From Dendrophyllia cribrosa (lineage: Eukaryota; Cnidaria; Anthozoa; Scleractinia; Dendrophylliidae): DNA of 64,000 nt. The notes below the pieces were generated by a model. That model did not search any database, was not told where the DNA came from, and was given only the letters and a program-made list of their open reading frames with translations. Made by a program: the position numbers and the translations under genes. This document shows positions 11,204 to 45,574 of this stretch, piece after piece (position 1 is the first letter of the stretch; every line of letters starts with the position of its first letter). The stretch spans positions 4,517,558 through 4,581,557 of the forward strand of contig JAJLRJ010000007.1 of the NCBI GenBank assembly GCA_024195265.1. Reading direction: 5' to 3'.

Positions 11204-13255
11204 ATGTTTGGCGTGAAGTTTGTGTTGGCTTTTGCCTTAATTTTCTTGATCAGTTCCAGTTATACTAACCAGGTAACGTTTTACAATACGATACGTTTTA
11301 CTTTTCTTGTCTTTTTCTAAATCTGTTTGCAGTATCTTCAAAGGAAGAAAGCCATCGGAATCTTTGGGAAGAAAACAAACTGCTTCGTGTTTCAAGTTAC
11401 CCTTTTTCCATCGATTTACTCAAGTTTTCTTGAAGTTTTATCTGGCATATGATGGTTAACTATACAACTACAAAAAATCAAATTGTTTAATAACGGTTTC
11501 GTGATAGAGCAAGGAAATGGTAACTCCGTGCCTTTCTTCGTGCTTATGAATCTTACGCCAGTTTATTAAATATATAGAAATAATTTACCTGAGAACAAAA
11601 ATAAACTCAGTACATATCTCCAAGCTTCATATATTACGGTATTTCTAATACACGGTTATCATATACATTTTATTATAGTTCTTGGAAGATCATGCCATAA
11701 AAGTTGATGCTCTGAAAAGGAAAATCCAGGTGACAAAAAATAAAAAAATAGATGATAGTATGATTCATGGACGCGTGAAAATCAGTATTATTAACCTTTT
11801 ATTCAGATACCTCACAAGTTACACGGACTAGTTACAGACTTTTATAATTCAGCTATCATGAAAACATTACATTAGTGAAATCGCATCGATTTTGCAGAGA
11901 TTATGCCATATTTCCAACACGTTTATTTACAGCAAGCAAACGGTTAGACTGAAAAAAGAAATTGAAATTTACAAATTAAATTGGGCAAAAGGTTCACTAT
12001 CATGAACTAAACTCTTACCGTTTTCTCGCACGGAATGGAAAATTTCTTGTTAACATTGCCAAGCTGGAATATGTGGGCATCTCTCCCCTCCGCAGAGGCT
12101 CCCACCGGTATTCCAAAAAGGAAATGTAAAGAAAAAAGTGAGCGCGCGGGGGACGATGGGAAGGGGGAAGGCGCGCTTTCTTTTCTCCTCTCCCCAGCCT
12201 CCTTGTGGCACATAGGTGTGGGCATAGTGTTCATGATAAACGCGTAAAAATATTATTAACCTTTATTTGCTAGCGCTTTATAACAAGAGAGCGAGATGTT
12301 CAGTCGAGAAGAAAAAATCTCTTTCAAAATTACTGTGTATACAGAAAATTACTGACTAAGCGGTCGAATAACTCAGTATATAAAATTATCTCCAAGCTTT
12401 ATGTATAACCGCATTTCTAATTACACGGTTATCAATTTATGATAAATTTGTGTTTCTTTTTAGCTCTTGAAAGCGAAAGTCAATACTCCGATACAGCAAG
12501 ATAAGGTAACAAAAAATAGAGAATAGTTCATGGACGCGTGAAAATCAGTTATTATTATTTTTTTTACATAACTCACAAGGTTTTACAGGCCAGTCAGAGT
12601 GCTTTTATAATTTACCTATCATCAAAACCTTTGGCAATAGGATATGTTCAGTTTTCCAGTGGTTCCCAAATCATGAAAAACGCGATTTTTTGTGACCATT
12701 CTGCATATTCTTATTCCGGGATACTGAAAATCGAACGCACCCTTGGTGCTTAATGGCCCCCTTCGGGACAAAGACTAATATAACACTTGCAAAGAGACTG
12801 AAATAGTTCTTTGGAAATTACGGTGTATAATAGCTGTAATTGTAGTATATGATCTATTTACTTTTCATGTGGTGCCTAGGTGATTATAAAGCTCAAACAT
12901 AGTTAATAGAACAAACTGGTTATGAAGCTCAACAAATTTCAAAAAGAGTGTACAAAGCTGCTTTGTTTTATGTTGAACGAACCGTGACCCTGCACATTGT
13001 TTTGTTTAACACGTGAGCCCAAATGTTTCTACTGGTCAGTTGCTCATATGCATTTCAATACCTTTTGTGTTTTGTGCAGGGTCAAGGCAAACGAACAAAA
13101 GAAATGGAGAACAAAAACATATAACAAAGGACTGACTGAGTTTCATAACCAGTTTGTTCTATTAACTATGGCTCAAATAAGCAACAGTACTTACCTTTAA
13201 TTATCTTCTTTTTTAGCCGAGTTTTAGAGGATGGCGCCGGCGGCGCCGGCGGTAG
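11204..13255 (+). CDS. Short secreted coiled-coil-type peptide, gene 1 (arginine-tail paralogue)
   Basis: Four coding exons, all phase 0: 11204-11272, 11679-11729, 12464-12505 and 13217-13255. Exon 1 (23 codons) is a signal peptide, MFGVKFVLAFALIF with an ISSSYTNQ end. Exon 2 (17 codons, FLEDHAIKVDALKRKIQ) and exon 3 (14 codons, LLKAKVNTPIQQDK) align with the coiled-coil heptads of the second locus but have lost several core residues. Exon 4 encodes PSFRGW and six arginines, then TAG. The total is 66 residues without cysteines. The donor after exon 2 is GTGACA, weaker than the GTAACA of the paralogue. The family is not recognised. A secreted cationic peptide, perhaps antimicrobial or matrix-binding, is conceivable but unproven. 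The arginines come from a GGCGCCGGC simple repeat, so the tail may be a recent accident. Splicing is inferred from paralogue conservation, not transcript data. Confidence 0.6.
12898..13170. mobile_element. 273-bp MITE in the last intron of gene 1, 7-bp duplication
   Basis: Inverted ends CATAGTTAATAGAACAAACT (and further to GGTTATGAA) are flanked by GCTCAAA at 12891-12897 and 13171-13177. The second locus lacks the element at the equivalent point (near 45480-45510), giving an empty site. Confidence 0.85.
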
Positions 13256-13640
13256 ACTGTTAGCCGTCCCTTTTCAGTCAGCCGAGCGGGCGAGATAATC
13301 ATCGTTGCTTTGGGCCTTCCTATTTCTTTGGTAGTTAATACTAGGAATCCTCTTCAGAGAGTTCATGTAGTAAATAAACCCCTTTTGGTGGCTGGTATAT
13401 CGGAGGATATTGGTCGCGGCTGAGGGAAAGTCCTAAAAATGAAGAGTTGGCTGAGAAAGCCTCATGGGCAACTGTTAAATTTTGAGGGCCATCTTTCAGC
13501 CAAGGGAATGATCCTCCTATACCAGCAAGCAAATTTTAGGCGATTAATGAAACAATGTTAATGGGTCTTTTGGTTAATAGAAATTGTATGAAAATGTTCG
13601 CATTATCAATATAATAAACGTATATACAACTGCAAGTTCT
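13256..13640 (+). other. 3'UTR of secreted-peptide gene 1 with poly-A signal
   Basis: Highly conserved with 45575-45960. AATAAA lies at 13613-13618, matching AATAAA at 45933-45938 in the second gene and about 360 bases after the stop in each. The strong conservation of this untranslated part supports the chosen last exons. Confidence 0.6.
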
Positions 13641-13821
13641 TTGAGGCAATTTCTTCAAGTTCAGTGTTGTTACTTGCGGATTTGAATGAGATTCATTCCT
13701 GGGTGGAGCCCTATTGGATATTGGATTGAGGATATGCCTATGTTGATGCATTGTGACAGCTCTTTTGGAAACTTTTAGACTATTTGAGTATTTTACTGAC
13801 ATTAGAAACTTGGAGAAGTTT

Positions 13822-14780
13822 TACAGCTTTGCCCGAAGCACGCTCATAGAAGTTAATAGGGAAGATATCAATGACGTCACCAATTGTTATTAATGTGCCA
13901 ACCAGAGCCCTATTGGCTGCCGAAACAAAGGGTTCTTTTGTTCCAGTGGTTGACACATTTGATCGAATAACAAAAAGAATGTTTGTAAACAGACTGATCA
14001 TCCCTATTAACAATTGGTGCATTTTCACAAGAGCGCGCTCCCAACGTTCTTTGCCCTCCAAAGCTCGTATGCCTCCAAAATGTCTGAGATAGCCTAGCGT
14101 TGCAGGCTGCATAACGCTCTCGATGTTTAGCCAAGGGAATGGTTTTGAGTACAGTACATGCAAACAAGAACCAGTTTATAAATGTAGGGTGCAATTTCAA
14201 GGACGCACCCTCTTCTTTACTGGCGCCTGTTACGTAGGTTTATTTCATTTCTGTTTATAATATATTTGATCTTCTTTACATTTGGATTTGCTCTGCCTGT
14301 ATTTACTGACTAAAGATGGTTAATACATAGCGGTCATTCAGCGAGAACTTGTGTAAAACGGCTGGGTATTTTTACGAGTCAGATTTTATTTTTTCGAGCC
14401 TTTAAGGTAGGTCCAAGTAGTTTTTTTGGGGGGTCACACTTCCCCTTTTGAATGCGCTCATATATAATCTTATTTTAGCTCAATGAATCTGAATTTGATA
14501 TCAGTTGTTAGGCTTGGATGAAAATTTTGGACGACGCTCTTTTTATTCTAATCAGCGTTTCCATAGCAACGGTAAACAAACATGGCGAAAAACGTTAATT
14601 AAAATCGTTAAGGTAGCTAATTAATTTTGTCGGTGGGGCTAGTTTAAATCCCCAAACCCTTTTTTTATTCTTATGGCCGTATTTGTTTTCATCACTTCGA
14701 GTTGAAAACATTATCACAAAGTTGAAAATCAGCTAAACTTTTAAAAATCGGTTTTACTCCAGCAATTTCTTGTCGCGATA
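13822..14780. other. Insertion relative to locus 2, then sequence without recognisable genes
   Basis: About 13822-14005 is absent between GGAGAAGTT and ACAATTGGTGCATTTTCA at the second locus (about 46175-46200). The two loci stop matching a few tens of bases later. The rest to 14780 shows no conserved coding signal or clear repeat ends. Confidence 0.45.
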
Positions 14781-15105: not shown

Positions 15106-15489
15106 CGATACCTGTTTACATGTTGCAATTTGTCGCCGCTAGTTTATTTGTTGGTTCCTTGATTGCATGATGCAATTTGTCTGCACGAAATTTTGTTCCG
15201 AAGTGGTTTCTGCGAGAAAAATTGCCTTCAGTCCCCGGGTGTTTACCATTTAGCCATGAAAACCGGTATTTTCAGTTGGAAAGCAAATGGTATGGTTGAT
15301 TTTCCGGGAATTTCGGTCGGAACTTAACTAGTGAACAAAAAATTCAGCGATTTATCAGTAGCGTGTGAATTATTCATTTTGTTTTATAATTAATTGTTGG
15401 TTGTGGAAATAAGAGGGACAAGTTTCCGAATCTAGCATGTTTTTGTTTTTGTTAAAAAAAAACGGAAAGGTCAGAAAGGTCGACACTTA

Positions 15490-15506
15490 GTAATAGTAAT
15501 TGGACT

Positions 15507-18699: not shown

Positions 18700-19875
18700 G
18701 ACATCTTGTGAATCTGTCATATCAGCCATAACTTTGTGTCACATAGAACACGTACTGTGAAAGGTGCATTTTCAGGCACAAAAACAACGAAATTTCACAT
18801 TAATTGGTTCCGCTCGTATCTCCCTTTTGACTGTGGTTTTAGGATAAAGTCCACGATTGCACCGATTAGTCACTTTCGGCAATTTGCATATTCTTCAGTG
18901 TAGCAACAAATGTTTCGTTATGTGAAATCATACTAATATAAGCGTGACGGGGGGTTTGAAAACCCGTTCTTAATTTGCATAGATTTTGGCGATTTTATTC
19001 CTTCGTTTTCAGTCTACATTTAACTGATCAGTTTGAGAAGCTAAATGATATCAAACACTCGAAAGAGTGTTTCATCAGGAATCCAAACACCTCGCAGTAA
19101 GATAAAACCTCGGCCGCGCCTCGTTTTTATATACACAAATGATGGCACAAAAATTAACAATTACAACAACAGGTTTTACTAAATCTAACGGTATTTTCAA
19201 CAATTCAAACTGATCAATTTGATATACCCTACATCGGCTACCTGACGGTACATTTATATTAACAATTGCTTCCATGAGGTGTGACAACCCCTGGACGCTT
19301 GGCTAAAATTTTGTACGCACAAAAATGAGAGATTTTTGCGGAGCTCGAAAAGTTATTTGTGTTCAAGGCGGATTTTATTATTAGGTAGGATAAAATACGG
19401 GGTTTTTGATTAGTTTTTAAGGCACCCGCTCGTTACGCAAACTGAAAAAGGTAGAGTATCGCATAAATTCACTAAAAGCTCGTTTCTCGAAATAAGGATG
19501 ATCTGTAATTTTAGAAACGACACAAATCTAATGTGATTAATTACTTAGAAATCTAAGACCACCCGTGTCTGGGTACTACCGCAATATGTGGCGAAATTAA
19601 TTTAGCGAATTAATTTTTATTGTATTTTATTATTTTTCGAGTGTGTCTTCCTTTTCGAGTGGGGGTCTTCGTTTTTCAGTCTTTGGTCTACGTTTTAATT
19701 TAGGGGTCTTCGTTTTCGACAATACCGATTCCAAATGGAGCAATATCAAAGACCGATATTCCAACATGATCGCGGTTGGCGCGGAGCAAATATGTGGCCT
19801 AGCTGGTGACGCTTTTCTTCTTCCTCGACGCCCAACAGCGTTTTTTATGACCACGAGGTCGCCATTCGCCGGGTA
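18700..19875. other. No recognisable gene
   Basis: Contains a short degenerate repeat of GGGTCTTCGTTTTT / CAGTCTTTGGTCTACG type at about 19640-19715. No splice-supported exon or clear element ends were seen. Confidence 0.5.
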
Positions 19876-20670
19876 ACGCTAAGAGTAACACAGGTTGGTA
19901 GCTTTTAAAATTCCGTCATACTGTATCTATGGTAACCTCTACGAACACTTGGCTCAGTCCCTTGGGTGTCCGTATTGGAGAGGTTAAACTGTATTTCATT
20001 TCTCCAAAACCTGGTATATAAACCGTAATTTTTATTCTTGGCCAATTGTTAATTAGAGCACTCTGCAGCAATTTACGTCGCAATCCAACTTGAAACACTT
20101 CAGCAGTAAACAGTTCTCATTGAATAAACATTCTTCCTTAAGAAAACAGTTTAAACAAACCAATTACAATATTTATGTTGAACTTTGCCACTGTTTCCGC
20201 AACGTTTTTAAATGCTCGCGATTTTTAAATTGTGTGTTATCACCAATTTTCAATTATCACTAATATGGAAGACTTAAAAAGTTCAGCGTCCAGATGATCG
20301 TTTTTGGATGGTTTTGCTGCACACAGGAAAACGGTACTAATATGATGCAAGCATTAAAAAAGGAAAAACTGAGGAATTAGATGTCATCCGCCGAATTTCA
20401 TCCAGATACTCAAAATTAAAGAAAATTAAAGAAAATTAAAATTAGTTATAAAGATAACATGAAAATAAGTTAACCCATCAATTTAGAACGGTTTTAGAAA
20501 TAATCCTTATTATTTTCATTTAACTATCAATCAACCTTTTCTAAAATAACAGCAGTTGTGTTTGTTTTTAGTTTCCGTAGTTTCAACAGCTGTTAGTATT
20601 GACATCTACGCATGTCTACGAGCACGAAAACCGTGTTATACGTGACACTGTTTGGACTGAATTCGATCTC
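19876..20670 (+). pseudogene. Third, truncated copy of the secreted-peptide promoter/5'UTR block
   Basis: Matches 34803-35880 and the split 5985-6357 plus 10045-10460: CTAAGAGTAACACAGG, GTGTCCGTATTGGAGAGGTT, TTCAGCGTCCAGAYGATCGT, CATCCGCCGAATTTCA, ACTGTTTGGACTGAATT. Similarity ends before the conserved donor, and no signal-peptide exon follows. This is the relic of a third family member. Confidence 0.65.
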
Positions 20671-20679
20671 ATAACACTC

Positions 20680-21092
20680 TTCTTCCTTCTTCTTTATTCC
20701 TGATTTACGCTGTTACGCGAACAGATTCTCACACAAAGCACCGCTTTGACCGTTATGCATATAACTAAACACACAACGAGACACTCAAATTACGGTTTCT
20801 TACACTAGGAGCATGGGTTACCTGTGTTTTAAGATGTAAAATTGATGAAAAATTGGCCGAAGAAGTTCAGAGCAGAGGATATAAATAAAGGCCGCACGTG
20901 AGAGCCGCGTGGATTAAGAATATAATTGCTGCCCATCGTCCTGGCCCGTCCTATAGCGTGTTGGCCTACAACTTAGAAAGCAAAAAGGGATCCACATGCA
21001 AAATTTCTAAAGAAGAAAGGTTGAATAAACTGACATCCAAAAATTTAGCATCGTTTTAACAGTAGACACATACTCCCAAACGAAGCCTATTT
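20680..21092. other. No recognisable gene
   Basis: AT-rich sequence without splice-supported exons or detectable inverted ends. Confidence 0.5.
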
Positions 21093-21096
21093 TTAA

Positions 21097-21566
21097 CCCT
21101 TTCACTCCCAGAGTCAATCATGGAGACATGTGGTGTAGTTCTAACTTTTGAGTCTGTGGACGAAATCCTATGGTGTGACCATTCAAATGAAACCTCTTCA
21201 GCAGTACTTTTGCATGGTACCATTTGTTCTAACTTTTGAGTCTGTGGACGAAATCCTATGGTGTGACCATTCAAATGAAACCTCTTCAGCAGTACTTTTG
21301 CATGGTACCATTTGTTCTAACTTTTGAGTCTGTTGATGAAATCCTATGGTGTGACCATTCAAATGAAACTTCTTCAGCAGTACTTTTGCATGGTACCATT
21401 TGTTCTAACTTTTGAGTCTGTGGACGAAATCCTATGGTGTGACCATTCAAATGAAATCTCTTCAGCAGTACTTTTGCATGGTACCATTTGTTTTTCAATA
21501 TTTTACAAAATGAAATTTGGAAGTTTTCTCCAATTTTGATTTTTGGCACTCTTGGGAGGTAAAGGG
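21097..21566. mobile_element. piggyBac-like MITE, TTAA-flanked, with four 88-bp tandem units
   Basis: Imperfect inverted ends (CCCTTTCACTCCCAGAGT at the left; CCCTTTACCTCCCAAGAGT at the right, reverse strand) lie between TTAA at 21093-21096 and 21567-21570. Inside are four near-identical 88-bp units starting at 21139, 21227, 21315 and 21403 (key motifs CTTTTGAGTCTGTGGACGAA and CAGTACTTTTGCATGGTACC). Open frames over the array follow from its repetition and are not genes. Confidence 0.8.
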
Positions 21567-21615
21567 TTAATTAGCCTGTGTACAGCCGCCTCATCCAACA
21601 GGCTATAGTTACTCA

Positions 21616-21934
21616 GGCCCCGTCCACACGTATACGTTTACGTCTGTAAACGCATATGTTTTTCTCTAAAACGCTCCCGTCCACAAGTACACGTTTACGT
21701 TCGTAAACGTATGCGTTTAGGCCTCCCGTCCACACGTAAACGCTAATAATCTGCATTGAGTATGTGTAGTATGTAGTGATCTACGTAAGCGTTTTCGAAA
21801 ATATCCACTTTGGAGAGCGTTTTTGAAAATGCCCGTTTAGGTGACCGTTTTCATCGTTTACGGGTGGACGGGAGGCCTAAACGCATAAAAACATATACGT
21901 TTGCGAACATAAACGTATACGTGTGGACGGGGCC
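21616..21934. mobile_element. MITE with TIR GGCCCCGTCCACACGTATAC, TCA-flanked
   Basis: The two ends are inverted repeats of GGCCCCGTCCACACGTATAC and extend into GTTTACG-type repeats. TCA flanks both ends (21613-21615 and 21935-21937). Interior copies of CGTTTACG and CCGTCCAC form several sub-hairpins. A relative lies at 61865-62409. Confidence 0.7.
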
Positions 21935-22060: not shown

Positions 22061-25000
22061 GACTACTTACAATACAGTACAGCTAATTACATACTACACA
22101 ATACTAATATGACTACATACAATACAGTACAGCTAATTACATACTACACAATACTAATATGACTACATACAATACAGTACAGCTAATTACATACTACACA
22201 ATACTAATATGACTACATACAATACAGTACAGCTAATTACATACTACACAATACTAATATGACTACTTACAATACAGTACAGCTAATTACATACTACACA
22301 ATACTAATATGACTACATACAATACAGTACAGCTAATTACATACTACACAATACTAATATGACTACATACAATACAGTACAGCTAATTACATACTACACA
22401 ATACTAATATGACTACATACAATACAGTACAGCTAATTACATACTACACAATACTAATATGACTACATACAATACAGTACAGCTAATTACATACTACACA
22501 ATACTAATATGACTACATACAATACAGTACAGCTAATTACATACTACACAATACTAATATGACTACATACAATACAGTACAGCTAATTACATACTACACA
22601 ATACTAATATGACTACTTACAATACAGTACAGCTAATTACATACTACACAATACTAATATGACTACATACAATACAGTACAGCTAATTACATACTACACA
22701 ATACTAATATGACTACATACAATACAGTACAGCTAATTACATACTACACAATACTAATATGACTACATACAATACAGTACAGCTAATTACATACTACACA
22801 ATACTAATATGACTACATACAATACAGTACAGCTAATTACATACTACACAATACTAATATGACTACATACAATACAGTACAGCTAATTACATACTACACA
22901 ATACTAATATGACTACATACAATACAGTACAGCTAATTACATACTACACAATACTAATATGACTACATACAATACAGTACAGCTAATTACATACTACACA
23001 ATACTAATATGACTACATACAATACAGTACAGCTAATTACATACTACACAATACTAATATGACTACATACAATACAGTACAGCTAATTACATACTACACA
23101 ATACTAATATGACTACATACAATACAGTACAGCTAATTACATACTACACAATACTAATATGACTACATACAATACAGTACAGCTAATTACATACTACACA
23201 ATACTAATATGACTACATACAATACAGTACAGCTAATTACATACTACACAATACTAATATGACTACATACAATACAGTACAGCTAATTACATACTACACA
23301 ATACTAATATGACTACATACAATACAGTACAGCTAATTACATACTACACAATACTAATATGACTACATACAATACAGTACAGCTAATTACATACTACACA
23401 ATACTAATATGACTACATACAATACAGTACAGCTAATTACATACTACACAATACTAATATGACTACATACAATACAGTACAGCTAATTACATACTACACA
23501 ATACTAATATGACTACATACAATACAGTACAGCTAATTACATACTACACAATACTAATATGACTACATACAATACAGTACAGCTAATTACATACTACACA
23601 ATACTAATATGACTACATACAATACAGTACAGCTAATTACATACTACACAATACTAATATGACTACATACAATACAGTACAGCTAATTACATACTACACA
23701 ATACTAATATGACTACATACAATACAGTACAGCTAATTACATACTACACAATACTAATATGACTACATACAATACAGTACAGCTAATTACATACTACACA
23801 ATACTAATATGACTACATACAATACAGTACAGCTAATTACATACTACACAATACTAATATGACTACATACAATACAGTACAGCTAATTACATACTACACA
23901 ATACTAATATGACTACATACAATACAGTACAGCTAATTACATACTACACAATACTAATATGACTACATACAATACAGTACAGCTAATTACATACTACACA
24001 ATACTAATATGACTACATACAATACAGTACAGCTAATTACATACTACACAATACTAATATGACTACATACAATACAGTACAGCTAATTACATACTACACA
24101 ATACTAATATGACTACATACAATACAGTACAGCTAATTACATACTACACAATACTAATATGACTACATACAATACAGTACAGCTAATTACATACTACACA
24201 ATACTAATATGACTACATACAATACAGTACAGCTAATTACATACTACACAATACTAATATGACTACATACAATACAGTACAGCTAATTACATACTACACA
24301 ATACTAATATGACTACATACAATACAGTACAGCTAATTACATACTACACAATACTAATATGACTACATACAATACAGTACAGCTAATTACATACTACACA
24401 ATACTAATATGACTACATACAATACAGTACAGCTAATTACATACTACACAATACTAATATGACTACATACAATACAGTACAGCTAATTACATACTACACA
24501 ATACTAATATGACTACATACAATACAGTACAGCTAATTACATACTACACAATACTAATATGACTACATACAATACAGTACAGCTAATTACATACTACACA
24601 ATACTAATATGACTACATACAATACAGTACAGCTAATTACATACTACACAATACTAATATGACTACATACAATACAGTACAGCTAATTACATACTACACA
24701 ATACTAATATGACTACATACAATACAGTACAGCTAATTACATACTACACAATACTAATATGACTACATACAATACAGTACAGCTAATTACATACTACACA
24801 ATACTAATATGACTACATACAATACAGTACAGCTAATTACATACTACACAATACTAATATGACTACATACAATACAGTACAGCTAATTACATACTACACA
24901 ATACTAATATGACTACATACAATACAGTACAGCTAATTACATACTACACAATACTAATATGACTACATACAATACAGTACAGCTAATTACATACTACACA

Positions 25001-32837: not shown

Positions 32838-34156
32838 GAAAATTCCGTCGCTTGCGTGTTATCTGCATTCTTATTCTTGCTTGTGTATAATTCTTGGTAA
32901 AAACGTTTTTGTTCGGAGAGTATATTAAAGGGATCTGTGACGATCGCACCACTAGTTTTCAATTTTCGCACATGTTTTTTAACATGGTTTCTTTTCTCCA
33001 AATTAAGAAAATATTTTGTACTCTTTTCACCATGTTCCCACCAACGCGCGCGTGCGCGAATAATAATACCTTGAAGTTTTTCTTCATAAAGAAGTTCTAA
33101 TTTTTCTTTAGCCGAATTGAGAACGTTTGCATTGTTGTCATTAGGGTCGGAATCAAATATTTTCTTTGCTTTATCAAATTCCTTTTGAAGTTTCATCTCT
33201 TTTTCTTTTCTTTCCATTGCTTTTCGTTTTGAATGCTGAATTGCGTGAACTCGGATATTATACTTAGTCCAATCCCAGATACTTCTATTGTCTGTCAATT
33301 CATTACGACCTTCTCTCAGCCACATAGGTATTTTAGCTGTTACTTCTCTAACATAGTCTTCATCTTCCAAAAGCGAGCAGTTCATTTTCCAATGGCCAGG
33401 ACCTTTGATATTTTTATCACTGATACAGAACTCTATAGAAATGGCTGCATGGTCAGTTTTTATGGCTGGAGTAATATCCGTCGTTGTAACTAAATCTTGT
33501 AAGTTATTTGAAATAAGCCAGTAGTCTAAGCGGCACAGAATCATTGGCGAGTTTTGACTCCACGTAAAGCTTTTTGTGGTGGGATTTTTCACTCTCCAAA
33601 TATCAATCAAGTCAAGATCATCACATAAACAATCAATGGTTGATATGACCGATTTCCTCGGTAAAAGTATGCCTCCTTTCTTGTCTAGCACCGGATTAAT
33701 TGGGCAATTAAAGTCCCCTCCAAGAATTATATTTTCTTCCTCGTCCAAATTCTCCTTTTGTAGAATAGTTTGTAAATTATTTAAGAAATCAATAATATAT
33801 GTACCCTTATTTGGTGCATAAATATTGATCAATACATACATTTTATCTTTAATCTCCGCCTTCAGGATAACATAGCGTCCTAACGGGTCTAAGATTTTTG
33901 AATGGATAACACAGTCAACACCCTTCCTAAAAAGAATGGCAACTCCGCGTGAATTTGGACTACCGTGTGACATAATTATCTCACCTCCCCATTCATTTTT
34001 CCACTGTCTTTCGGTATCTTTTTTTGAATGAGTTTCCTGCAAAAATATGAAATCTGCCTTTTGTTTTCGACACCAAGTATAAATCATTCTCCTTTTTCGA
34101 AAGTTGTTAATGCCCCTCACATTCAAGGAGACCAATTTACATGTATCCAATATCAT
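32834..34156 (-). pseudogene. LINE ORF2 apurinic/apyrimidinic-type endonuclease domain
   Basis: The 440-codon frame starts MILDTCKLVSLNVRG. Exonuclease-endonuclease-phosphatase motifs are in order: LNVRG (Asn12), FLQETH (Glu41), INIYAPN, GGDFNCP (Asp148, Asn150), FTWSQ, LDYWLIS (Asp211) and TDHAAI (Asp235, His236). All expected catalytic residues are present. The tail is a basic, coiled region (KRKAMERKEKEM) leading to RWWEHGEKSTKYFLNLEKR, a segment just before the reverse transcriptase. A frameshift at about 32840 separates it from the reverse-transcriptase frame. The domain nicks target DNA in this family. Confidence 0.85.
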
Positions 34157-34802: not shown

Positions 34803-36638
34803 AGACTAAGAGTAACACAGGTTTTGTAGCTCTTAAAATTCCGTCATATCTATGGAAGCCTCTACGAACACTTGACTCGTAAACTTTGGTGTCCGTATTG
34901 GAGAGGTTCACTGTATTTCATTTCTCCAAAACCTGTTATATAAACATTTTATTCTTTAAATATTTCTCACCAATTCTTAATTATAGCATGCACTCTGCAG
35001 CAATTTACGTCTCAATCCAACTTAAAACACTTCAGGTCCTTCAGCTGTTTATATTTTAATAATTATGCAATCATAATAAAAAGACGAAGAACAGTTCTCA
35101 TAAATAAACTGATTCTTCCTCAAGAAAACAGTTAAAACATGAATGCGTTTTTAAATGTTTTTTTTTAACTTGATTTTTATGTGCGTTTTCATTGAAAATT
35201 GAACAAACGTTCAGCGTCCAGACGATCGTTTTCGGATATGTCATCCGCCGAATTTCAATACTGTAAGGATAACATGAAAATAGCTCATCAATTTAAAACG
35301 GTTTTAGAAATAATTATCTTTTCCTCATTCAACTATCAATCAACATTTTCTAAAATAATAGCAACTGTAACATAAACGAAATAGCATCTTAACTCAGAAA
35401 AAATTCCGAGTTCCAGATGGAATTCGAACCCACGACCCTCCGTGATCTACCACTGAGCTACTAGAACTCTGTGGCGAGCAAGGGTGAAATGTGGTCATCG
35501 CGCGGTCACACAGCCAAATAACTTAACACATATGACTCATAACTGCATCGCGCAGTCACATTAAGGCATAACGAGGATGTAACCAACCAACCTCCTAAGT
35601 GAGTCTTTTAAGAAATGAAACATAAACGAAATAGCATCTTAATCATTCGTGGGTTCGAATCCCATCTGGAACTCGGAATTTTTTTCTGAGTTAAGATGCT
35701 ATTTCGTTTATGTTTCATTTCTTAAAAGACTCACTTAGGAAATAGCAACTGTGTTTGTTTTTAATTTTTGTAGTTTCACCAGCTGTCTGAAGCTGCCAAT
35801 TGTAATTATCTACGAGCACGAAATGGCGATGTAAAATATCATGGATTGCAAGGTCTCTGTTATTCAGTGATATTCGCGACCGCTGTTTGGACTGAATTTG
35901 ATCTTCGTCAGCACCCTTCTTCTGGCATCAAAGCTTGGTAAGTCAGTCATGTAATAGATTAAAGTGTCAACTGCAGCAGTTTTTTTTCCTAAACTGAGGT
36001 CTGGAATTGGTCTCACGGAGATGTAACCCTTTTTACTCCTGAAGTTACTCTCGGTGTCAGAGGCTTTTCTCGCGCTCTTATCTCTCTTACGATTGCACGC
36101 TTCTTATTTGTCGTTTTAAATTTACGCCGCGTCGTTTGATCGGCGTCCTGCTAACCCATACTGCTCACAAAAGCGTACTACGAGAAAACCTCTGGTACCC
36201 AGAGTATCCTTAATCTAAGCCGTGGTTTAATTTTTTTTCTCTCTCTCTGCTCCTAGCTTTTGAGTTTGTGGATAAAAAGCGTGACCATTCTAATCAAATT
36301 ATCAAAACTCTCGTGCAGTACTTTCTTGTAGGCGTTGTTTGTTTGAAGGTAGCTAGTAGAAAATTAAGTTATGGATTTTTCGTAAACAGTTTTGTTTTGC
36401 GCTCTCTTAGGAATAAAACGGTTTCAACCGCGCCCCCAATTTTCGTTCTGGCCGAAAAAGGTGTTTGTAATAACGAGCTAGTGCAGGGGCCTATTACGGG
36501 GTGATTGAATGACGGGGTTCTACTATAGTTCAACTAGGACGTTGGATGAAGTATAAGAAAATTAATTTTCAGATGCAATGTAGCTGACTTCATTTGTTTA
36601 TGTATTTGCCAGTTGACTTCTGAGGAGTGAGAACAAAA
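34803..36638 (+). promoter_or_regulatory. Upstream region, 5'UTR exon and intron 1 of secreted-peptide gene 2
   Basis: Starts at CTAAGAGTAACACAGG and is conserved with loci 1 and 3. The 5'UTR exon ends at 35937 (AAGCTTG|GTAAGTC). Intron 1 holds one diverged 88-bp unit (about 36250-36335) shared with the element at 21097. The segment 35368-35740 is a tRNA-derived insertion absent from the other copies. Confidence 0.55.
35368..35740. mobile_element. Inverted pair of tRNA-derived SINE-like sequences with 11-bp duplication
   Basis: Flanked by identical AATAGCAACTG (35357-35367 and 35741-35751). On the minus strand, 35395-35475 reads TAGCTCAGTGGTAGATC (A-box-like) and GTGGGTTCGAATTCCATC (B-box-like), too short between boxes for a working tRNA. 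The right half repeats the B-box part in the other orientation (GTGGGTTCGAATCCCATC at about 35647). Both halves share a TTAAGATGCTATTTCGTTTA end. The long direct repeat suggests retroposition. Confidence 0.7.
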
Positions 36639-39600
36639 ATGTTTGGCGTGAAGTTTGTGTTGGTTTTTGCCTTAATTTTCTTGGTCAGTTCCAGTTCTGC
36701 TAACCAGGTAACGTTTTACGATACGATACGTTTCACTTTTCATGTCTTTTTCTAAATCTGTTTGCAGTATCTTCAAAGGAGGAAAGCCATCGGAATCTTT
36801 GGGAAAAAAAAAACAAGTGCTTCGTGTTTAAAAGTTACCCTTTTTTCATCGATTTACTCAAGTTTTCTTGAAGTTTTATCTGGCATGTGATGGTTAACTA
36901 TAGAACTGAAAAAAAATCAAATTGTTTAATAACGGTTTCGTGATAGAGCAAGGAAATGGTAACTCCGTGCCATTCTTCGTGCTTAGTGAATCTTGCGCAA
37001 GTTTATTATATAGAAACAATTCACCTGAGAACAAAAATAAACTCATTATATATCTTCAAGCTTCATATATTACCGTATTTCTAATCTGCTAATTCACGGT
37101 TATCATATAATTGTTTTTATAGCTCTTGGAAGATCTTGCTATCAAAGTCGATGCTCTGGGAAAGAGAGTCGAGGTAACAAAAACATAGAAACTAGAGAAT
37201 GATATTTATGGACGCGTGAAAATCAGTATTCTTAACCTTTTATTCCGATACCTATGGCGTTTCGTTGCGGACAAAAATAACTCCTCAAAAAAGAAGTCAC
37301 TTACTTCGAAAATCTAAACGATGAGATTAAAAAAATGGGGTCGACTAAATAAAATTTTACTTCAAAAAAATAATAATGGTCCACGATTTAAAAAAAAATG
37401 TGGTTTAAAGTGCCTATAAAGTGAAAAATCACTGAAGCTTATTTGAAAGACCTTTTGAAGACAAGAAGAAGAGTGCTTTCTGTTTTGAAATGTTGCCTCT
37501 CATTCCGGAGATATTCAAGTTTTTGTGTAAAAAGAGATGACGTCATAAATGCTGGGTCTTTCTGCATGTACCGGAACCCATGAACCACTCATTGTCTTCT
37601 ATTGTTTGTGAGGCATTGTATTTTTGGTCTTGTTTTGCATTTGTATTGTTGTCGATCTTTGTTCCTTTTGTTTTACGTAATATGTGCTCCGGTACATGCA
37701 GAAGGAACCTAAATGCTTCTAAAGGAAGACAAATTTACAAAATATAGAATATCTTTAGAACTATTAGAGCGGTGCTCTTCAAACTTGGCACCAGCAATGT
37801 ACATCAGACAAGGCATAAAATGACACCCATTGTGCTGTTACCATGGCAACAGTTTTGCTTCCAGATTAAGTTTTTGCAGAACTGACCTTCCCATTTTTTG
37901 TGTTAACCAAACATCATTCACTCTAAATGAGTTTATTAGGAGACCTACAGCAACATGGGCTCTATGTGTGTTTCGAGCAGGTCTTTCTGTCTCGCCTGAT
38001 TTGATAGGAAATTAAGATATATGGTTTACAACAGAAAGGGACTGGAGCCATTAGTGTTGCCATGGTTACAATATGCTCCACGACATGTTGTACCTTTTTT
38101 GAAGGTCATTATTGGTGCCAAGTTTGAATAATATCACTCTTATATTTTCAGAGATATTCTTAATTTTGTGATCTATCTTCTCAATGGAAGCATTTATGAC
38201 GTCATCAATTTGCTAATTTTCATAACCCAAAAACTCAAATATTTATGAGGAGAAAAAAGATATTTCAAATCAGAAAACGCCACACTTCATTATTTTGAAA
38301 CGCCTTTCAAATGAGCATCAATAATTTTTTACTTCATAGCCACTTTAAGTTCAAAAATTGAGTCGAGTTTTGAAAAAAATGAGACTGACGCAAAAGTGCA
38401 GTCAACCGGAAAAATTAACATCGAAAAAAAAAAACAGTAGTCAAGAGGAAGCAGAAACTGTTAGCGCGTCAACCGGATGAAGTAGTGTGCAGGCTACGCG
38501 CGGTCTTGCGCGTGGTCAGAAACAAAATGGCGCGATGGCTTCCAATTTCTCTCCTTGGGAAGGCTGATCGAAAGTTCAGAAGAACAGTTCCATCCAACGA
38601 TATTGCTCGGATTCTGAGAGTTTCGGATAGAACTTTGCGACGACGGCGACATGGTAGATCCTGTTTCAACCACCCTGAGAAATGCAAGGAGGATAATCCG
38701 TAGAAGCTACAGTGTCACCTGCCCAAACTCCCTCTGGTAAGCTTTGCCATTTCATTTCCGACTGCGTATGGAGTGAAGCACGCGAATCCTCTGAACTACC
38801 AGCCCACGTTGTCTCAGTGATCCTTGAACCATTCTAAGGCCTGCTGATGGAGTTTCTTCCCGTACTTGGCGTACCATGTTGTCTAGCTCAGTATCTGATA
38901 TGTTTAAATTCTCTTCTAACGACACGCATACCAAACTGTCATGTCGCCGTCGTCGCAAAGTTCTATCCGAAACTCTCAGAATCCGAGCAATATCGTTCCA
39001 GCGGAATCCACAATCTCCGTAAAATGCATCTAATTGTTCTCGATATATTGCTAGCCGAAGACCCCCTTGTGAATGAGATTGTTCATGATAAAGAATCTTA
39101 CTTTGCCCTTCATTCTCATCCTTTTCATCCCAACAGACAAAGCAACGTTGCTGAAAATGAGCTCGTAGAGTGGTTGTTCGGCTGAGCAGGTGGTTTAACT
39201 AAACTATGCAGGTCTGTTGAGAATCTGCTTGCCTATACACCTCACAAAAAACGGGCTATCAACGTCGACAGCCGGTTCGCTCGTATTCTTCTAATCGACG
39301 GACCAAACATTCTGAAGTATCACAAAAAGCTGAATGGAACTGTTCTTCTGAACTTTCTATCAGCCTTCGGCTTCCCAAGGAGAGTAAAAAGTCTTCAAAC
39401 TTTGGAAGCCATCACGCCATTTTGTTTCGGATCGCGCGCAAGACCGTACGTAGCCTGCACACTACTACCTGTGATGCCATATACGGACATGCCCCATTAC
39501 ATCCGGTTGAGGCGCTAACAGTTTCCGCTTCCTCACGAGTAGTGTTTTTTTTCGATGTTAATTTTCCCGCTTAACTGCACTTTTTGCGTCAATCTTATTT

Positions 39601-42600
39601 TTTTCGAAACTCGGCTCAATTTTTGAACTTGAAACCACATTTTTTTTAAATTGTGGACCATTATTTTTTTTTAAGTAAAATTTTATTTAGTCGACTCAGG
39701 AGCCTCTCCTGGTCGACCCCATTTTTTTAATCTCATCGTTTAGTTTTTCGAAGGGGGGGGGGGGGGGGGGTATTTTTGTCCGCAACGAAACGCCGTCCAC
39801 AGACGCGTGAAAATATTCAATTCGTTAACCTTTATTTGCTAGCGCTTTATAACAAGAGAGCGAGATATTCAGTTGAGAAGACCACCAACTATTGTTATTT
39901 TGTTTCATTTATCAACAGTTTAAGTTCAAGTTTTGGGACTGTTCCTCAGTTCCCGAAAATTGTTCGAAACACTTTTGATAATTTTGATTCTTTAATAATT
40001 TAACCCCACTACAGGAGTTGTAACAACCCTTTCAAAGTTACAGTATGTTGCCCAGTTTCCGGCCACTTTAGTTTGTAATCGCTATAACTCCTTTGTTTTG
40101 CACGGAAAATTTCTCAATTTCCTTTCAAAGACAGTTCATTTACTTACCTTTAAAACGTTAAATGGTTGGCGACCTTCCCCAAGTATTAAAGAAATTATAC
40201 CATTTTTCGCAAAACTAGTAAGTTGCCCAGTTTCCGGCCAGCTAGCCCAGTTTCCGGCCACCGACTTAAAGTAAATTTTCCTTGAAACCGCTCGACGTAA
40301 ACCGACTTGTAAGTCCCTTGATAATAGTGGTCGCCTAGTTATAAATATCAGGTAAGTTTCAATATTAAGCTTTGTCGCCTACTGTTTTACTATTCAAAAT
40401 ACGTATGACCTTAGTGACCCGGAAGCGTGTCTTCCGCAGTTTGTTGACAGACTACTACAAAAACAAATCATGACTTACGTACTTTAGTCACGCTATACAT
40501 GCATAAGCTGTTGTTAATTCGTAATCTTTGTTACACTAACACATGTATCTTTAATTTCTCGACCAGGAAATTTTAATATTCGGTTCTTTCACTTAATAAG
40601 AAATAGGTTTTGAGCAATGTGTCTTTTAGTGGCCGGAAACTGGCACACTAGGTCGAAATCTTCGCTGAGAGTTGACTGCTAAAATTTCAGGAACAGCCCT
40701 ATTCCAGCTGACGATGATAGATTCCCTAATCACTTTCATCTTTAATCTAATATTTGTCCAAAAATTATGAAGCTCCTTGAGATATTTCCTGTGAAACGAG
40801 CTATTTGTTTATCTACGGTAGTTTTGATGTGCAGTGAAACGAGCCAAAATTAATCGCTAAACGTTCAATCACCTGGACAAAACATTTCCTTCCTCAGCCG
40901 TTCCTTGTTCAAAAAGAACGCCAAAACCACCAATGTGTAGCGGAAATGTTCGTCTTTCTTTCGGAACGCTTCGGTGGACGAAAATTTAAAACTCCGACGA
41001 ACATAACCGACGTAATTGTTTTTTGGCCGGAAACTGGTACTGGCCGGAAACTGGGCAACACACTGTACTGTGTAAAAAGAAAATAACGTAAATAACGTGT
41101 ATAAAATTATCTCCAAGCTTTATGTATAACCGTATTTTTACTGCGCCTTTCAATAACATGCGGAATTTGAAATTCAAATTTCCACCAACGGTTGCGTTTT
41201 ACACTGCTGTCAATCATCTCAGCTTACCTCTTAGGAAACAGATCTTCACTTCAATGAGTTCAAAAGGTCACGTCCGTGCATTATGATTGGTAGATTTCGA
41301 TCCATTTGTTTGTTTCTTTTTTACATGGTCCGTTGGCTTTCGTATTAATTATGATTGACGGCAGGGAATAACGCAACCGTTGGTGGAGATTTGAATTTCA
41401 AATTCCGCGCGTTATTGAAAGGCGCAGTAATTGTAAACATGGTTGTTAATTTATGATAAATTTTTGTTGCTTTTTAGTCCTTGGAAACGAAAGTCGGTTC
41501 TCTGATACAGCAAGTTGAGGTAACAAAACATAGAGAATAGTATTCATGGATGCGTGAAAATATGATTCAAGGTTTTACAGGCTAGTCAGGGTGCATTTAT
41601 AATTTACCTATCATAAAAACCTTTCATTGGTTCTTTTTTTATAAAAGCTATAAGCCATTAGCTTACAAAATTCTTCTTGCAAGTCAGCACTAACAAATTA
41701 TAAGAATTAAGACCTGAATTAACACTATAGACTTGATCAACTGAAACTAGATCTGGGACAAGAAGAAGGAGAAACGTTGGTGACCAAACTGAGCCCATAT
41801 GATATCAAACAAGGTAGTGGAAACGAACCAAGCATTCAACCAAAATTTGAATTATTTCACCCCACTAGCTACAACAGCAAGTTGTAATAACTGTTTGAAA
41901 ATGACTGTGTAGAAAAAAATACACAATTTAGCCGAAAACTGAGAAAGACTTGGAACAAGAAGAAACGTTAGTGATATTTTACAAACCATCGAAAAAACTG
42001 AGCCCATATAAAATTAAATAAAAAAATATAAATTGAATTGGGTATAGTATAGTAAACGAAACAAGCATTATCCAAAATTTTAATTGCGCCGAAAGGTTTA
42101 CTAAACTAAACTAAACTCTTCCCGTTTTCTCGCACGGCCTGAAAAAAATTCTTGTCCTTTGAACATTGCCGAGCTGGGCCGGAAATTTCAAGGCCCGTTT
42201 ACACAATTTTTTGTGCAATTTTTGTCGCACATGTCGATGCAATTTTTGTCGCGCGCAAGTTGCATCTTCAAATCGCATGTGTAAACGGGCGGCGATTTCA
42301 GTGCGATTTAGGCGCGATTTGTCGCGCGATGTCGCAGAGGTTCTGATGTTCGAAACCTGATGCAATTGGCTTGTTGTAAAATACGCTACGCAACGCAACG
42401 CAATATTACGCAATATACGCCCATGACAATTTGTAAAATACGCAATATACGCAATATCCCCAAATGTCAATTTGTAAAATACGCAATATCGGGCGCAATA
42501 TTCGCAAAACGGTTCGTTTCAACAGCGGTCGACTTGCAAAAAGTCATATTGCGCATGCTCACCATTACTACGAGGTTTCTCCATTCCATTCTCGTCCCCA

Positions 42601-44808
42601 GAGCTCCACGGTTTTTTTTTAATTGCGTCTCGTGTAGCTCTGGTAACGGACAAAAATTTGAATTTTTTGATTGGCCGTTTAAAAATGAATGCGCAACAAG
42701 GTAAAAAAAAATCACGCTTCTACGCATAAGGTTTTACTTTCGGTTGAATTTCAAATGTTCAAGTCCAATGACGACTCCATCAACAAAACCAACGTTTTAA
42801 TTTCAACGCATTCAACGACCAATGTCACCCAGTTTTGTTTGGTTTAGCAGGTAACGATACGGCTGCTAAATTTCAAAGTATGATTGTCGCTAAATATGAG
42901 CGATTCGTTTCCGAAAATAATCAGTATGTGTCTTGGAAGACAAAGCTATAAGCGGCCACGAATATTAAAGAAGTATGTTGTTTGCAACAGGAACGAGTAT
43001 TAATTAAAGGAGAGGCAGAAATCCTGAAGAAAGCCCACGGGTGAAAAGAAATATTACCACTAGGTTACCCATTTTAAATAACAACAACAACAACAACGCT
43101 ATCAGCACTCTCGTAAGCAAGTTATATTTTCTTTATTATAGGTACAGTACTCTTTGCTACAATCTAGGGAAACGAAGGTCACTCGAAGCCCAATTAAAAT
43201 AACATGAAACGAATGCAAAACAAAAATTCCTCGATATTTCTTACCACTGTTCGATGAAATAAGCCTAATCAATGACCATAGCGTGTCCATCAACAAACTT
43301 AGCTGTCCCATCAACTGATTTGGTCGGATATGATAGCGTTCAGTGGCGAAACGATAAATACACAGCTCCCAAACGAAAGAAATCGGTTGACTTATCGAGG
43401 ATTTTCTAAAACCAGCAGGCAAAATACAAAGACAATCTTTCTTCTAAATAACAGCAGCACGTAAAGCTTTTCTTCTTTCTTTTTCAGCGCGATGTTTTCC
43501 TGTAATTGTAATAGGCTCCTGGTCTTGTACAGTCCTTTCGAACGCCATTCCACACACACAACATTCTCGTCTCCAGAGCTCAACCAAACGAAACGAGAGC
43601 TCTGGGGACGAGAATGCACACACGAAAGGTTTTATTATTTCCGGTTTCTGGTATTGAGCAAGCGCAATAGTACATTAATGCATTAGGCATGCGCTAACGG
43701 ATGTCGTGGATTTTACGACATCCGGAAGGCACTGTTACCAGAGCCCTTCGTTTTTTCCGCTGACCAAACGAAACGAAGGCTCTGGGGACGAGAATGGTGC
43801 CTCGTAGGAATGTTGAGCATGCGCAATGTGACCTTTTGCAAGTCGACCGCTGTTGAAACGAACCGTTTTGCGAATATTGCGTATATTGCGTATTTTACAA
43901 ATTGACATTTGGGGATATTGCGTATATTGCGTATTTTACAAATTGTCATGGGCGTATATTGCGTACATTGCGTATATTGCGTTGCGTATATTGCGTAATA
44001 TTGCGTTGCGTTGCGTTGCGTATTTTACAACAAGCCGATGCAATTTGGCGGCAATTTTTGAGAAATCACAGCAAATCAAAGCAAATGTCGCACTCTGTGT
44101 CGCACCCGAATCGCACAGGAAATCGCCCTAGTTTACACTTGCGACAAAAGTTGCATTGGAGAGCGCGACAAAAATCGCAACAAAAATCGCATTAAACGGG
44201 CCTTTAGGTAAGAAAAAATAAATAGGGAATAGTGTTCATGGACGCGTGAAAATATTGTTAAACTATATTATTTTGCTAGCGCTAAAACAAGAGAGCGAGA
44301 TATTTAGTTGAGAAGAAAACCACCAACCATTGATATTTTGAAACTTAACGCATAGACTGCTGTTTAAGCAGTCGCGACAATTCAGCTGAATATATCTCCA
44401 AGCTTCATTTAATTTATCTCATTGTATTTCTAATTGAATGGCTGTCATATCTTTGTTGCCTTGTTAGAAACTGAACAAGCAAGTCTTTCCTAAACTGGTA
44501 AGAAAAAAATCAATAGAGAATAATATTCATGGACAAGTGAAATATTACTAACCTTTTATTGCTGGCGCTATTTAAGGGTTAGGGTTGAGTAAGCAAAATA
44601 TTAGGTTTTGAGAAGAAAGCCGTTTGTTACGGTATTTTGTTAAAGTGTTTTAGTTCAAGTTTTGAGACTATTTTCGGAGACTTAAATACTTTATAAAAAT
44701 GTACTGTTCCTAAGAATTGTTCGAAACTCATAAACATGCGAATGGTTTTCTTCGTTCTCCGCGAGTTCCTTAAAAATACTTTGATAGCAATTGATAATAA
44801 TGAGATTA

Positions 44809-44841
<33 letters not shown>

Positions 44842-45574
44842 ATTTATATAGCGCACATATCCATAGTTCAAGGCGCTTTACAATCAGCAAATAGCAAAAT
44901 ATAAAAAACTTAACGTCTAATCCTTCGGGACATTGTAGCACTTTCATGTTCAAAGAGACTGAAATAGTTCTTTGGAAATTACGGTGTATTAGTAATAGTA
45001 ATTGGACTGAGTGGAGAACAATTCATTTCATGGAGTAATCGGGCGAGTAATTCAAATCGGCCGAGCGCGTAGCGCGAGGACGATTTGAAATTACGAGTAC
45101 GATTACCCCTGAATTGTACGACACGAAGTTCAATTACTAATTAATCGCATCAATAACCAAATTCGAGATTAAAAAGTCTATGTCGACTCTTTTGTACTAA
45201 AAACGTCTAGGATATTTTTTATCAGTTTGAAAGTAGAAGGAAAACAGCAAAAAAGAACCCATTGAAGTGTAACTGATTGACGCGCGCAACTTAGGTGTCC
45301 AATTACAGCTATCCAATTACAAAAAGTTTCAATTGGATACCTACGTGACCGCGTGCCAATTACGTGAGAAATAGGCGCGTGGATGACCAATCACAATCGA
45401 GAATTTTGTTATTGATACGATTATAACTGTAATTGTAGTATATGATCTACTTACTTTTCATGTGGTGCCTAGGTCATCATAAAAGCTCAAAAACGTTCTC
45501 AAATAAGCAACAGTACTTAACTTTAATTATCTTCTTTTTTTAAGCCGGAAATAGAATTTCCGGGTGGATGGTAA
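36639..45574 (+). CDS. Short secreted coiled-coil peptide, gene 2 (acidic/Gly-Trp tail paralogue)
   Basis: Five coding exons, all phase 0: 36639-36707, 37123-37173, 41478-41519, 44468-44497 and 45545-45574. Exon 1 is a signal peptide (MFGVKFVLVFALIFLVSSSS, cleavage likely before NQ). Exons 2-4 join into a regular coiled coil with Val at one core position and Leu at the other: LLEDLAI, KVDALGK, RVESLET, KVGSLIQ, QVEKLNK. Exon 5 encodes PEIEFPGGW and TAA, giving 73 residues without cysteine. Each short exon sits in a similar intron cassette (CTCCAAGCTT upstream; a GTAA donor then GGACGCGTGAAAAT downstream). An alternative donor in exon 5 (GGATG|GTAAAC) could extend the protein to unseen exons; if so, a coiled-coil stalk on a larger secreted protein such as a short collagen is possible. 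The family is not recognised. Introns are enlarged by transposons. Confidence 0.6.
37409..38344. mobile_element. 936-bp MITE nested in the foldback arm, TTAA duplication
   Basis: The ends AGTGCCTATAAAGTG and CTTCATAGCCACT are inverted, flanked by TTAA (37405-37408 and 38345-38348). The opposite arm of the host palindrome (about 39610-39640) is the empty site, reading GTGGTTTCAAGTTC on its reverse strand. TTAA targets fit piggyBac or Kolobok types. Confidence 0.75.
38752..39075 (-). pseudogene. N-terminal fragment of an integrase-core (rve-type) transposon protein
   Basis: Reads on the minus strand GGLRLAIYREQLDAF, then FRWNDIARILRVSDRTLRRR (helix-turn-helix), ISDTELDNMVRQVREE, and AGLRMVQGSLRQRGLVVQR before RVLHSIRSRK and a stop. 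This order (recognition helix followed by a GxRMxxGxLxxxG module) precedes the catalytic core in a group of metazoan integrase-domain proteins. The catalytic core is missing. An inverted partial copy of the helix-turn-helix lies at 38590-38660 on the plus strand. It may be the source of the foldback's mobility or captured cargo. Confidence 0.6.
39795..40038 (+). repeat. Orphan intron cassette of the secreted-peptide gene
   Basis: GACGCGTGAAAATATT, TTAACCTTTATTTGCTAGCG and ACAAGAGAGCGAGATATTCA recur here as they do after the other short exons and at 12235-12315 in gene 1. The exon that should precede it is absent, replaced by the foldback element. Confidence 0.6.
40041..41065. mobile_element. 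1,025-bp Tc1/mariner-like MITE with six copies of GCCCAGTTTCCGGCCA motif
   Basis: The ends CAGTATGTTGCCCAGTTTCC and, inverted, CAGTGTGTTGCCCAGTTTCC are flanked by TA (40039-40040 and 41066-41067). The CAGTTTCCGGCCA motif occurs three times in direct orientation at the left (about 40050, 40225, 40247) and three times inverted at the right (about 40630, 41023, 41040). These are candidate transposase-binding sites. There is no transposase gene. Confidence 0.85.
41141..41427. mobile_element. 287-bp MITE, TIR CTGCGCCTTTCAATAAC, TA duplication
   Basis: The inverted ends start CTGCGCCTTTCAATAAC and extend through GGAATTTGAAATTCAAAT and CCACCAACGGTTGCGTT. TA flanks both sides (41139-41140 and 41428-41429). 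Locus 1 shows the empty site near 12418 (ATTTCTAATTACACGG). Confidence 0.9.
42191..44203. mobile_element. 2.0-kb foldback element, TIR AGGCCCGTTTACAC
   Basis: The ends AGGCCCGTTT are inverted; the flanks are TCA (42188-42190) and TTA (44204-44206), perhaps a mutated 3-bp duplication. The arms contain repeats of GCGATTTTTGTCGC and then ACGCAATATACGCAATATCC-type repeats mirrored at 43860-44030. A loop of about 1 kb contains a flanked micro-MITE (43562-43616) and a related one at about 43738-43797. Its insertion removed the exon expected before the donor at 44208. Confidence 0.75.
43562..43616. mobile_element. 55-bp micro-MITE with 9-bp duplication
   Basis: CATTCTCGTCTCCAGAGCTC faces GAGCTCTGGGGACGAGAATG. 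It is flanked by CACACACAA and CACACACGA (one mismatch). The size class and duplication length match 5079-5152. Confidence 0.75.
44207..44467 (+). repeat. Orphan donor and intron cassette before exon 4 of gene 2
   Basis: GGTAAGAAAAAATAAATAGG with the cassette signature GGACGCGTGAAAATATTG follows directly after the foldback element, without an exon. Then come the CTCCAAGCTT and acceptor region of exon 4. This points to a lost cassette exon. Confidence 0.55.
44811..44838. repeat. ATT microsatellite
   Basis: About nine ATT units, followed by TATATAGCGCACATATCC and CAAGGCGCTTTACA, a short repeat end often seen in marine invertebrate genomes. Confidence 0.7.
44992..45420. mobile_element. 429-bp TTA-flanked repeat element, copy B
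   Basis: Close relative of 15490-15908. Locus 1 (near 12830) lacks it, and TTA is present on both sides. Confidence 0.7.

What the first reader, a model, noticed from the sequence alone, without database searches (positions are those of the whole stretch)
11204..45574. Paralogous mini-genes for secreted coiled-coil peptides built from tandem exon cassettes
Two loci encode 66- and 73-residue secreted proteins through exons of 17, 14, 10 and 9-12 codons, all phase 0. Each short exon is embedded in a similar intron cassette (upstream CTCCAAGCTT, downstream GGACGCGTGAAAAT), so protein length can change by adding or losing whole heptad exons. In gene 2 the exons join into five regular heptads. Orphan cassettes without exons (12235, 39795, 44207) show past gains and losses. 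I know of no named family with this layout.
Basis: partly seen in the sequence, partly recalled or inferred. Interest (0 to 1): 0.8.

Follow-up and report, generated by a model that had tools for sequence, protein, structure and literature searches.

The report
Head-less paralogs of coral coiled-coil proteins
The two small genes look like copies of a coral family of secreted proteins that kept the signal peptide and the rod-like stalk but lost the globular head; the intact family has no name, and may build a three-part head by joining three chains.

Summary
The interpretation changes. On the same contig g3, g4 and g5 share the signal-peptide and stalk exons; p6 and p7 are diverged relatives. 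In g3, g4, p6 and p7 a last exon encodes a ~65-70-residue head. Joined g4 matches Acropora digitifera LOC107334994 over its whole length (50%); a profile finds members in Acropora, Porites and Montipora, without a Pfam family. g1 and g2 lack the head exon (so does g5, apart from a 5-kb unread gap), and their stop codon lies in a ~50-bp high-copy repeat. The orphan cassettes adjoin transposon-like insertions. The head is homologous to one unit of three-unit proteins, some from marine bacteria; a three-unit model's best Foldseek match is the PCSK9 C-terminal domain. Trimer motifs occur in coral stalks, strict in 4 of 21, loose in 14. Best reading: intact members are secreted trimers with one head per chain; g1 and g2 are head-less derivatives under relaxed constraint. 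No transcript data for g1 or g2.

The parts
10424..10481 (+). g1 5' non-coding exon (donor GT at 10482; its start is not known)
   Evidence: 62-bp query matches g1-g5 at 89-100% identity; donor read
11178..11272 (+). g1 exon with start codon at 11204: signal peptide MFGVKFVLAFALIFLISSSYTNQ
   Evidence: one search finds five copies on C20
11679..11729 (+). g1 stalk exon C1 (FLEDHAIKVDALKRKIQ, 17 codons)
   Evidence: same exon in g2-g5
12464..12505 (+). g1 stalk exon C2 (LLKAKVNTPIQQDK, 14 codons)
13217..13255 (+). g1 last exon PSFRGWRRRRRR*; stop inside a high-copy repeat segment (about 13251-13301)
13256..13640 (+). g1 3' untranslated region (end approximate), AATAAA at 13613
   Evidence: 7.3% divergence from g2; parts shared with g4 and g5
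35878..35937 (+). g2 5' non-coding exon (start not known)
36613..36707 (+). g2 exon with start codon at 36639: signal peptide MFGVKFVLVFALIFLVSSSSANQ; its 69 coding bases are identical to those of g3 and g4
37123..37173 (+). g2 stalk exon C1 (LLEDLAIKVDALGKRVE)
41478..41519 (+). g2 stalk exon C2 (SLETKVGSLIQQVE)
44468..44497 (+). g2 stalk exon C3 (KLNKQVFPKL)
45545..45574 (+). g2 last exon PEIEFPGGW*; stop inside a high-copy repeat segment (about 45570-45620)
45575..45950 (+). g2 3' untranslated region (end approximate), AATAAA at 45933
37256..39794 (.). inverted-repeat, transposon-like insertion; orphan cassette 39795 starts at its right end
   Evidence: outer arms 37256-37284/39766-39794, 93% complementary
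41138..41430 (.). short inverted-repeat element splitting the g2 C2 cassette
   Evidence: 80-nt arms, 91% complementary
42190..44204 (.). inverted-repeat insertion splitting a cassette; explains orphan 44207
   Evidence: outer arms 25 nt, 76% complementary; sequence left (42047-42193) and right (44203-44326) of it adjoin in two places of the C20 paralog region
12072..12225 (.). short insert between 9-bp direct repeats; precedes orphan 12235
   Evidence: sequence read directly

Best explanation
g1 and g2 are head-less paralogs of a family of secreted anthozoan proteins. Intact members (g3, g4, p7 here; relatives in Acropora, Porites, Montipora) consist of a signal peptide, a short coiled-coil stalk and one head of about 65-70 residues with four cysteines. 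Inferred mechanism: the stalk joins three chains, so three single-unit heads sit together like the three-unit block that some marine bacteria make in one chain; the trimer is secreted and binds a surface ligand, most likely a glycan. In the line leading to g1, g2 and probably g5 the head exon was lost, the coding end was replaced (by repeat-derived sequence in g1 and g2), and stalk exons were added or decayed. If still expressed, g1 and g2 give short secreted coils that could join head-bearing chains through the shared stalk exon; the sequence shows relaxed constraint. Shown: exon relationships, absence of the head exon from the window, homology of the head to the repeats. Inferred: direction of change, trimerisation, ligand binding, co-assembly, expression.
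For: Head exon found downstream of g3, g4, p6 and p7, with no significant match in the window (DNA profile). Joined g4 aligns to Acropora digitifera LOC107334994, 110 aa, 50% identity over 100%. Joined p7 is 84% identical over 119/119 residues to P0005, a 119-aa protein on a 1743-base contig, which supports the junctions of that gene (how the source predicted P0005 is not given). Profile search: 60 proteins at E<=1. The head equals one repeat of three-repeat proteins: hhalign E 1.5e-16, 58 columns; three-repeat secreted proteins in Algicola and Pseudoalteromonas, 6 loci confirmed of 27 stretches, one with a Ricin_B_lectin domain (E 3.1e-17). Model of the three-repeat P0038 (organism not given): pLDDT 86, pTM 0.84; Foldseek best PCSK9 C-terminal domain, E 4.7e-4. 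Coral model: helix 25-55, then strands. Motif [RK]hxxh[ED] in 14 of 21 stalks against 1.1 expected from shuffles; strict RhxxhE in 4 of 21 against 0.24. In the 3' region g1, g2 and g5 are 7.5-9.0% apart and g4 17.5-19.4% away. Relaxed constraint: C1+C2 of g1/g2 differ by 18 nonsynonymous and 3 synonymous changes.
Confidence: 0.6

Rival explanations
1. g1 and g2 are dead relics: no stable spliced transcript or protein is made.
For: No purifying selection visible between g1 and g2 (C1 11/51, C2 10/42 differences, mostly nonsynonymous); g1 coil is weak; last exons end in repeat sequence and differ by 59% of aligned bases; transposon-like inserts lie in the introns; related p6 has a disturbed head frame.
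Against: Splice sites, start codons and frames are intact in both; no indel in the 162 coding nt of SP, C1 and C2 (2.2 expected, P(0)=0.11, weak; the automatic alignment puts a 4-nt gap in the last exon).
Confidence: 0.22
2. g1, g2 and g5 are selected coil-only effectors: they diversify under positive selection and either act alone or poison head-bearing trimers.
For: Coil exons of g1/g2 exceed non-coding DNA in nonsynonymous change: 18/72 sites against 115/1212 intron sites (one-sided p=1.9e-4) and 19/155 sites of immediate cassette flanks (p=0.015). g2 has RVESLE across the C1/C2 junction and joined g5 has RVDALE and RVSDLE.
Against: Gene conversion of the 5' half could lower intron divergence; C1 flanks alone are 15.4% divergent against 21.6% in the exon. 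Nonsynonymous against synonymous is not significant (p=0.24).
Confidence: 0.13
3. One reading: a self-standing new family of secreted coil peptides whose length changes by whole heptad exons.
For: Exons, phases and cassettes are as described; g1, g2 and, as far as read, g5 lack the head.
Against: The same signal-peptide and stalk exons precede a head exon in g3 and g4, the form also found in other corals.
Confidence: 0.05

Closest known systems
Unnamed coral proteins LOC107334994 / LOC107350756 (Acropora digitifera), LOC114952086 / LOC114949969 (A. millepora), ABFA07_021778 (Porites harrisoni)
   Same: signal peptide, stalk and head in the same order
   Different: g1 and g2 lack the head and have more stalk exons than g4
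Three-repeat secreted proteins of Pseudoalteromonas and Algicola
   Same: same LDRxxVxC repeats; the coral head aligns to one repeat of three-repeat proteins
   Different: three repeats in one chain, no coil seen
PCSK9 C-terminal domain and resistin
   Same: best Foldseek match of the three-repeat model; entry 2qtw is titled as showing structural homology to resistin in that domain; resistin is a coil-trimerised single head (recalled)
   Different: no sequence match; resistin head is far richer in cysteines (recalled)
Coral small cysteine-rich proteins (SCRiPs)
   Same: a taxonomically restricted coral family (PMC2652719, title and start of abstract in a search listing); short and secreted (recalled)
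   Different: g1 and g2 have no cysteine; heads have four

Membership tests
Coral signal peptide-stalk-head family | conserved signal-peptide exon joined in phase 0 to a stalk exon | tested here: met
   g1-g5, (exon boundaries predicted, not seen in cDNA for g1 or g2)
Coral signal peptide-stalk-head family | C-terminal head LDRxxVxCP...YxYRCCKF | tested here: not met
   g1, g2: no significant head match in the window by tblastn or DNA profile; so head-less paralogs, not full members
Coral signal peptide-stalk-head family | regular coiled-coil stalk | tested here: met
   g2 100% a/d hydrophobic, shuffle 0.0002; g1 only 67%, 0.046
Trimeric coiled coils with RhxxhE motif | strict R-h-x-x-h-E | tested here: inconclusive
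   4 of 21 head-bearing stalks, g2 once, joined g5 twice, g1 none; motif as described in PMC5940361 (passages)
Resistin (FIZZ/RELM) | Pfam match to the family | tested here: not met
   no Pfam family for g4 at E<=1; none for P0001 and two heads, and only a sub-cut-off leucine-zipper match for P0002, at E<=10
PCSK9 C-terminal domain fold | three-module beta fold | tested here: inconclusive
SCRiPs | cysteine-rich mature peptide (definition recalled) | tested here: not met
   0 cysteines in g1 and g2 translations

The most novel reading that the evidence does not exclude
Corals rebuilt a three-unit extracellular binding head, which some bacteria encode as three tandem repeats in one chain, by giving a single unit a coiled-coil stalk so that three chains assemble it; the cassette exons set stalk length, and head-less paralogs such as g2 and g5 act as natural dominant-negative or dose-tuning subunits.
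Probability: 0.2. Interest if true: 0.75.

Novelty: new variant of a known kind. Interest (0 to 1): 0.5.

Why it matters
The head domain had no Pfam or NCBIfam family and no significant PDB sequence match in the searches here, yet it joins coral secreted proteins to marine bacterial ones. If the coral proteins are trimers, this is a clear case of a repeat protein turned into an oligomer, with stalk length set by exon copies and with head-less copies as by-products. It also gives coral genes of unknown function a structural hypothesis that can be tested.

Tried and rejected
g2 as a protein query found no relative (no candidate with three shared words); this says little, because g4 of the same genome was not returned by its own query either. 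Pfam hits of g2 (13 at E<=1) are all below cut-off and look like coiled-coil cross-matches. PDB by sequence: nothing significant for the head, the profile or P0046. Foldseek with the coral monomer: nothing at E<=0.001, and no resistin entry among the 50 rows shown; none among the rows either. Pseudogene test by indels was weak (P=0.11). Cassettes as a dispersed repeat: not supported. Literature (open-licence PMC library only; listings seen, not papers, unless said): no paper holds any of six locus names; searches for coil families, lectin/beta-prism, resistin/PCSK9 and coral restricted genes listed nothing that I recognised as this family. PMC13044578 (coral genes of unknown function; abstract, section list and a term search of the main text) has no occurrence of resistin, PCSK9, coiled, lectin, signal peptide or proprotein convertase. 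I at first took the trimer motif as lost in g2; one search showed a strict one across its C1/C2 junction. A scripted search for the stalk exon of the C16 gene gave none that passed my filter; frames there were listed and not pursued.
Full report
WHAT IS THERE. The window lies at C20:4517558-4581557 of a 627-Mb genome in 22 contigs. g1 and g2 also share a 5' non-coding exon and a 3' untranslated region.

MORE LOCI. A protein search of the genome with g2 gave 6 matches, all on C20, five of them the signal-peptide exon. I fetched C20:4250001-4520000; 5000 bases (4264558-4269557) read N. The overlap with the window was identical. Signal-peptide exons of g3 (4322219, -), g4 (4290566, -) and g5 (4286286, -) are complete; p8 (4256790, -) is a fragment; p6 (4357333, -) and p7 (4369915, +) are diverged. 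A cassette profile found 15 full or partial copies, 8 of them its own seeds. A whole-genome search with one cassette found 7, all on C20 between 4.27 and 4.56 Mb.

THE MISSING HEAD. g4's last exon encodes 71 residues with four cysteines. The joined g4 protein matches Acropora digitifera LOC107334994 over its full length at 50% identity. tblastn puts the same exon after g3, p6 (frame disturbed) and p7 as well. Genome-wide there are 8 matches to the head, 8 of 8 candidates scored: C20 x4, C16, C3, C19 x2. The C16 gene has a signal-peptide-like start upstream. No significant head match lies in the window. Joined p7 is 84% identical over 119 of 119 residues to P0005, a protein on a 1743-base contig, which supports the phase-0 junctions of that gene. 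A profile of five members found 60 proteins at E<=1, among them Acropora, Porites and Montipora proteins with the full layout. Of those I scanned, none has a Pfam family above cut-off; NCBIfam gave 0 for 8 proteins.

HOW g1 AND g2 AROSE. g5 also lacks the head as far as it can be read; its N run lies between its stalk exons and its last exon, so a head exon there is not excluded. Its last exon reads QLAAHIAGK*, which I compare by eye with the first residues of the head exon (ALTTRMNGA in g4); this is inference. In g1 and g2 the stop codon and following bases belong to a ~50-bp repeat: 34 of the 42 rows are such matches, on 13 of 22 contigs, with 40 of 310 candidates scored, so a lower bound. 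The 3' region places g1, g2 and g5 7.5-9.0% apart and g4 17.5-19.4% away (g3 has no alignable 3' region), which fits one head loss; the 5' region instead joins g1, g2 and g3 (10-11%), with weak tree support (64-84), so exchange between copies is likely. The orphan cassettes adjoin insertions: arms 37256-37284/39766-39794 (93%), 42190-42214/44180-44204 (76%), and, in the g2 C2 cassette, 41138-41217/41351-41430 (91%); in g1, 9-bp direct repeats at 12072-12080 and 12217-12225.

STALK. C1 (17 codons) runs g to b of the heptad, C2-type exons (14 codons) run c to b, and head exons start at c with Leu at d, so a 14-codon exon can be added without changing register (read from the sequences). a/d hydrophobicity: g2 1.00, g4 1.00, g3 0.91, g5 0.82, p7 0.78, g1 0.67. 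The trimer motif RhxxhE (described in PMC5940361, passages read) occurs strictly in 4 of 21 head-bearing stalks (0.24 expected from shuffles); the looser [RK]hxxh[ED] occurs in 14 of 21 (1.1 expected). The 21 are four genes of this genome (g3, g4, p6, p7) and 17 of the 60 proteins, those I judged to have a usable N-terminus; the rest, many with a probable intron-derived start, were left out, and related sequences count more than once. Joined g5 has two strict motifs, g2 one across its C1/C2 junction, g1 none.

SELECTION. Between g1 and g2: 5' intron 11.4%, intron 1 5.8%, intron after C1 16.2%, sequence before and after C2 12.2% and 5.0%, 3' untranslated region 7.3%, downstream 7.1%, signal peptide 5.8%; but C1 21.6%, C2 23.8% and the last exon 59%. 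C1+C2 carry 18 nonsynonymous and 3 synonymous changes. One-sided tests: against all introns p=1.9e-4; against immediate flanks p=0.015; nonsynonymous against synonymous p=0.24. C1 flanks themselves are 15.4% divergent, so part of the contrast may be conversion of the 5' half. In the four comparisons with g4 the C1 exon is less divergent than its flanks (0.12-0.18 against 0.23-0.30), as expected if that gene is constrained; but the head-bearing g3 does not show this against g1, g2 and g5 (0.18-0.24 in the exon, 0.09-0.17 in short flanks). Safe statement: no purifying selection is visible on the g1/g2 coil.

VERDICT. A real and well-observed structure, wrongly taken for a stand-alone family. It leads to an unnamed coral family whose head links it to bacterial three-repeat proteins.

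Noticed in passing
63515-63559: Type I hammerhead ribozyme, 44 bits against a gathering score of 34.
   Followed up: no
22061-27945: Satellite of a 50-bp unit, about 118 copies, 99% matches, strongly strand-skewed composition.
   Followed up: no
30857-34156 (-): Long frames resembling an endonuclease plus reverse transcriptase of a non-LTR retrotransposon (recognised by eye, not searched).
   Followed up: no
19875-21616: Partial copy of the family's upstream region, with an 88-bp unit repeated four times, matching sequence upstream of g3 and g5.
   Followed up: partly
45570-45620 and 13251-13301: A ~50-bp segment present in at least 34 further places of the genome; its identity is unknown.
   Followed up: partly
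L035 1501-2043: Algicola frame with three head-type repeats followed by a Ricin_B_lectin domain.
   Followed up: partly
C19:38589727-38596007: Two diverged head-type matches (34-36% identity) on another contig; may belong to other genes with this domain.
   Followed up: no
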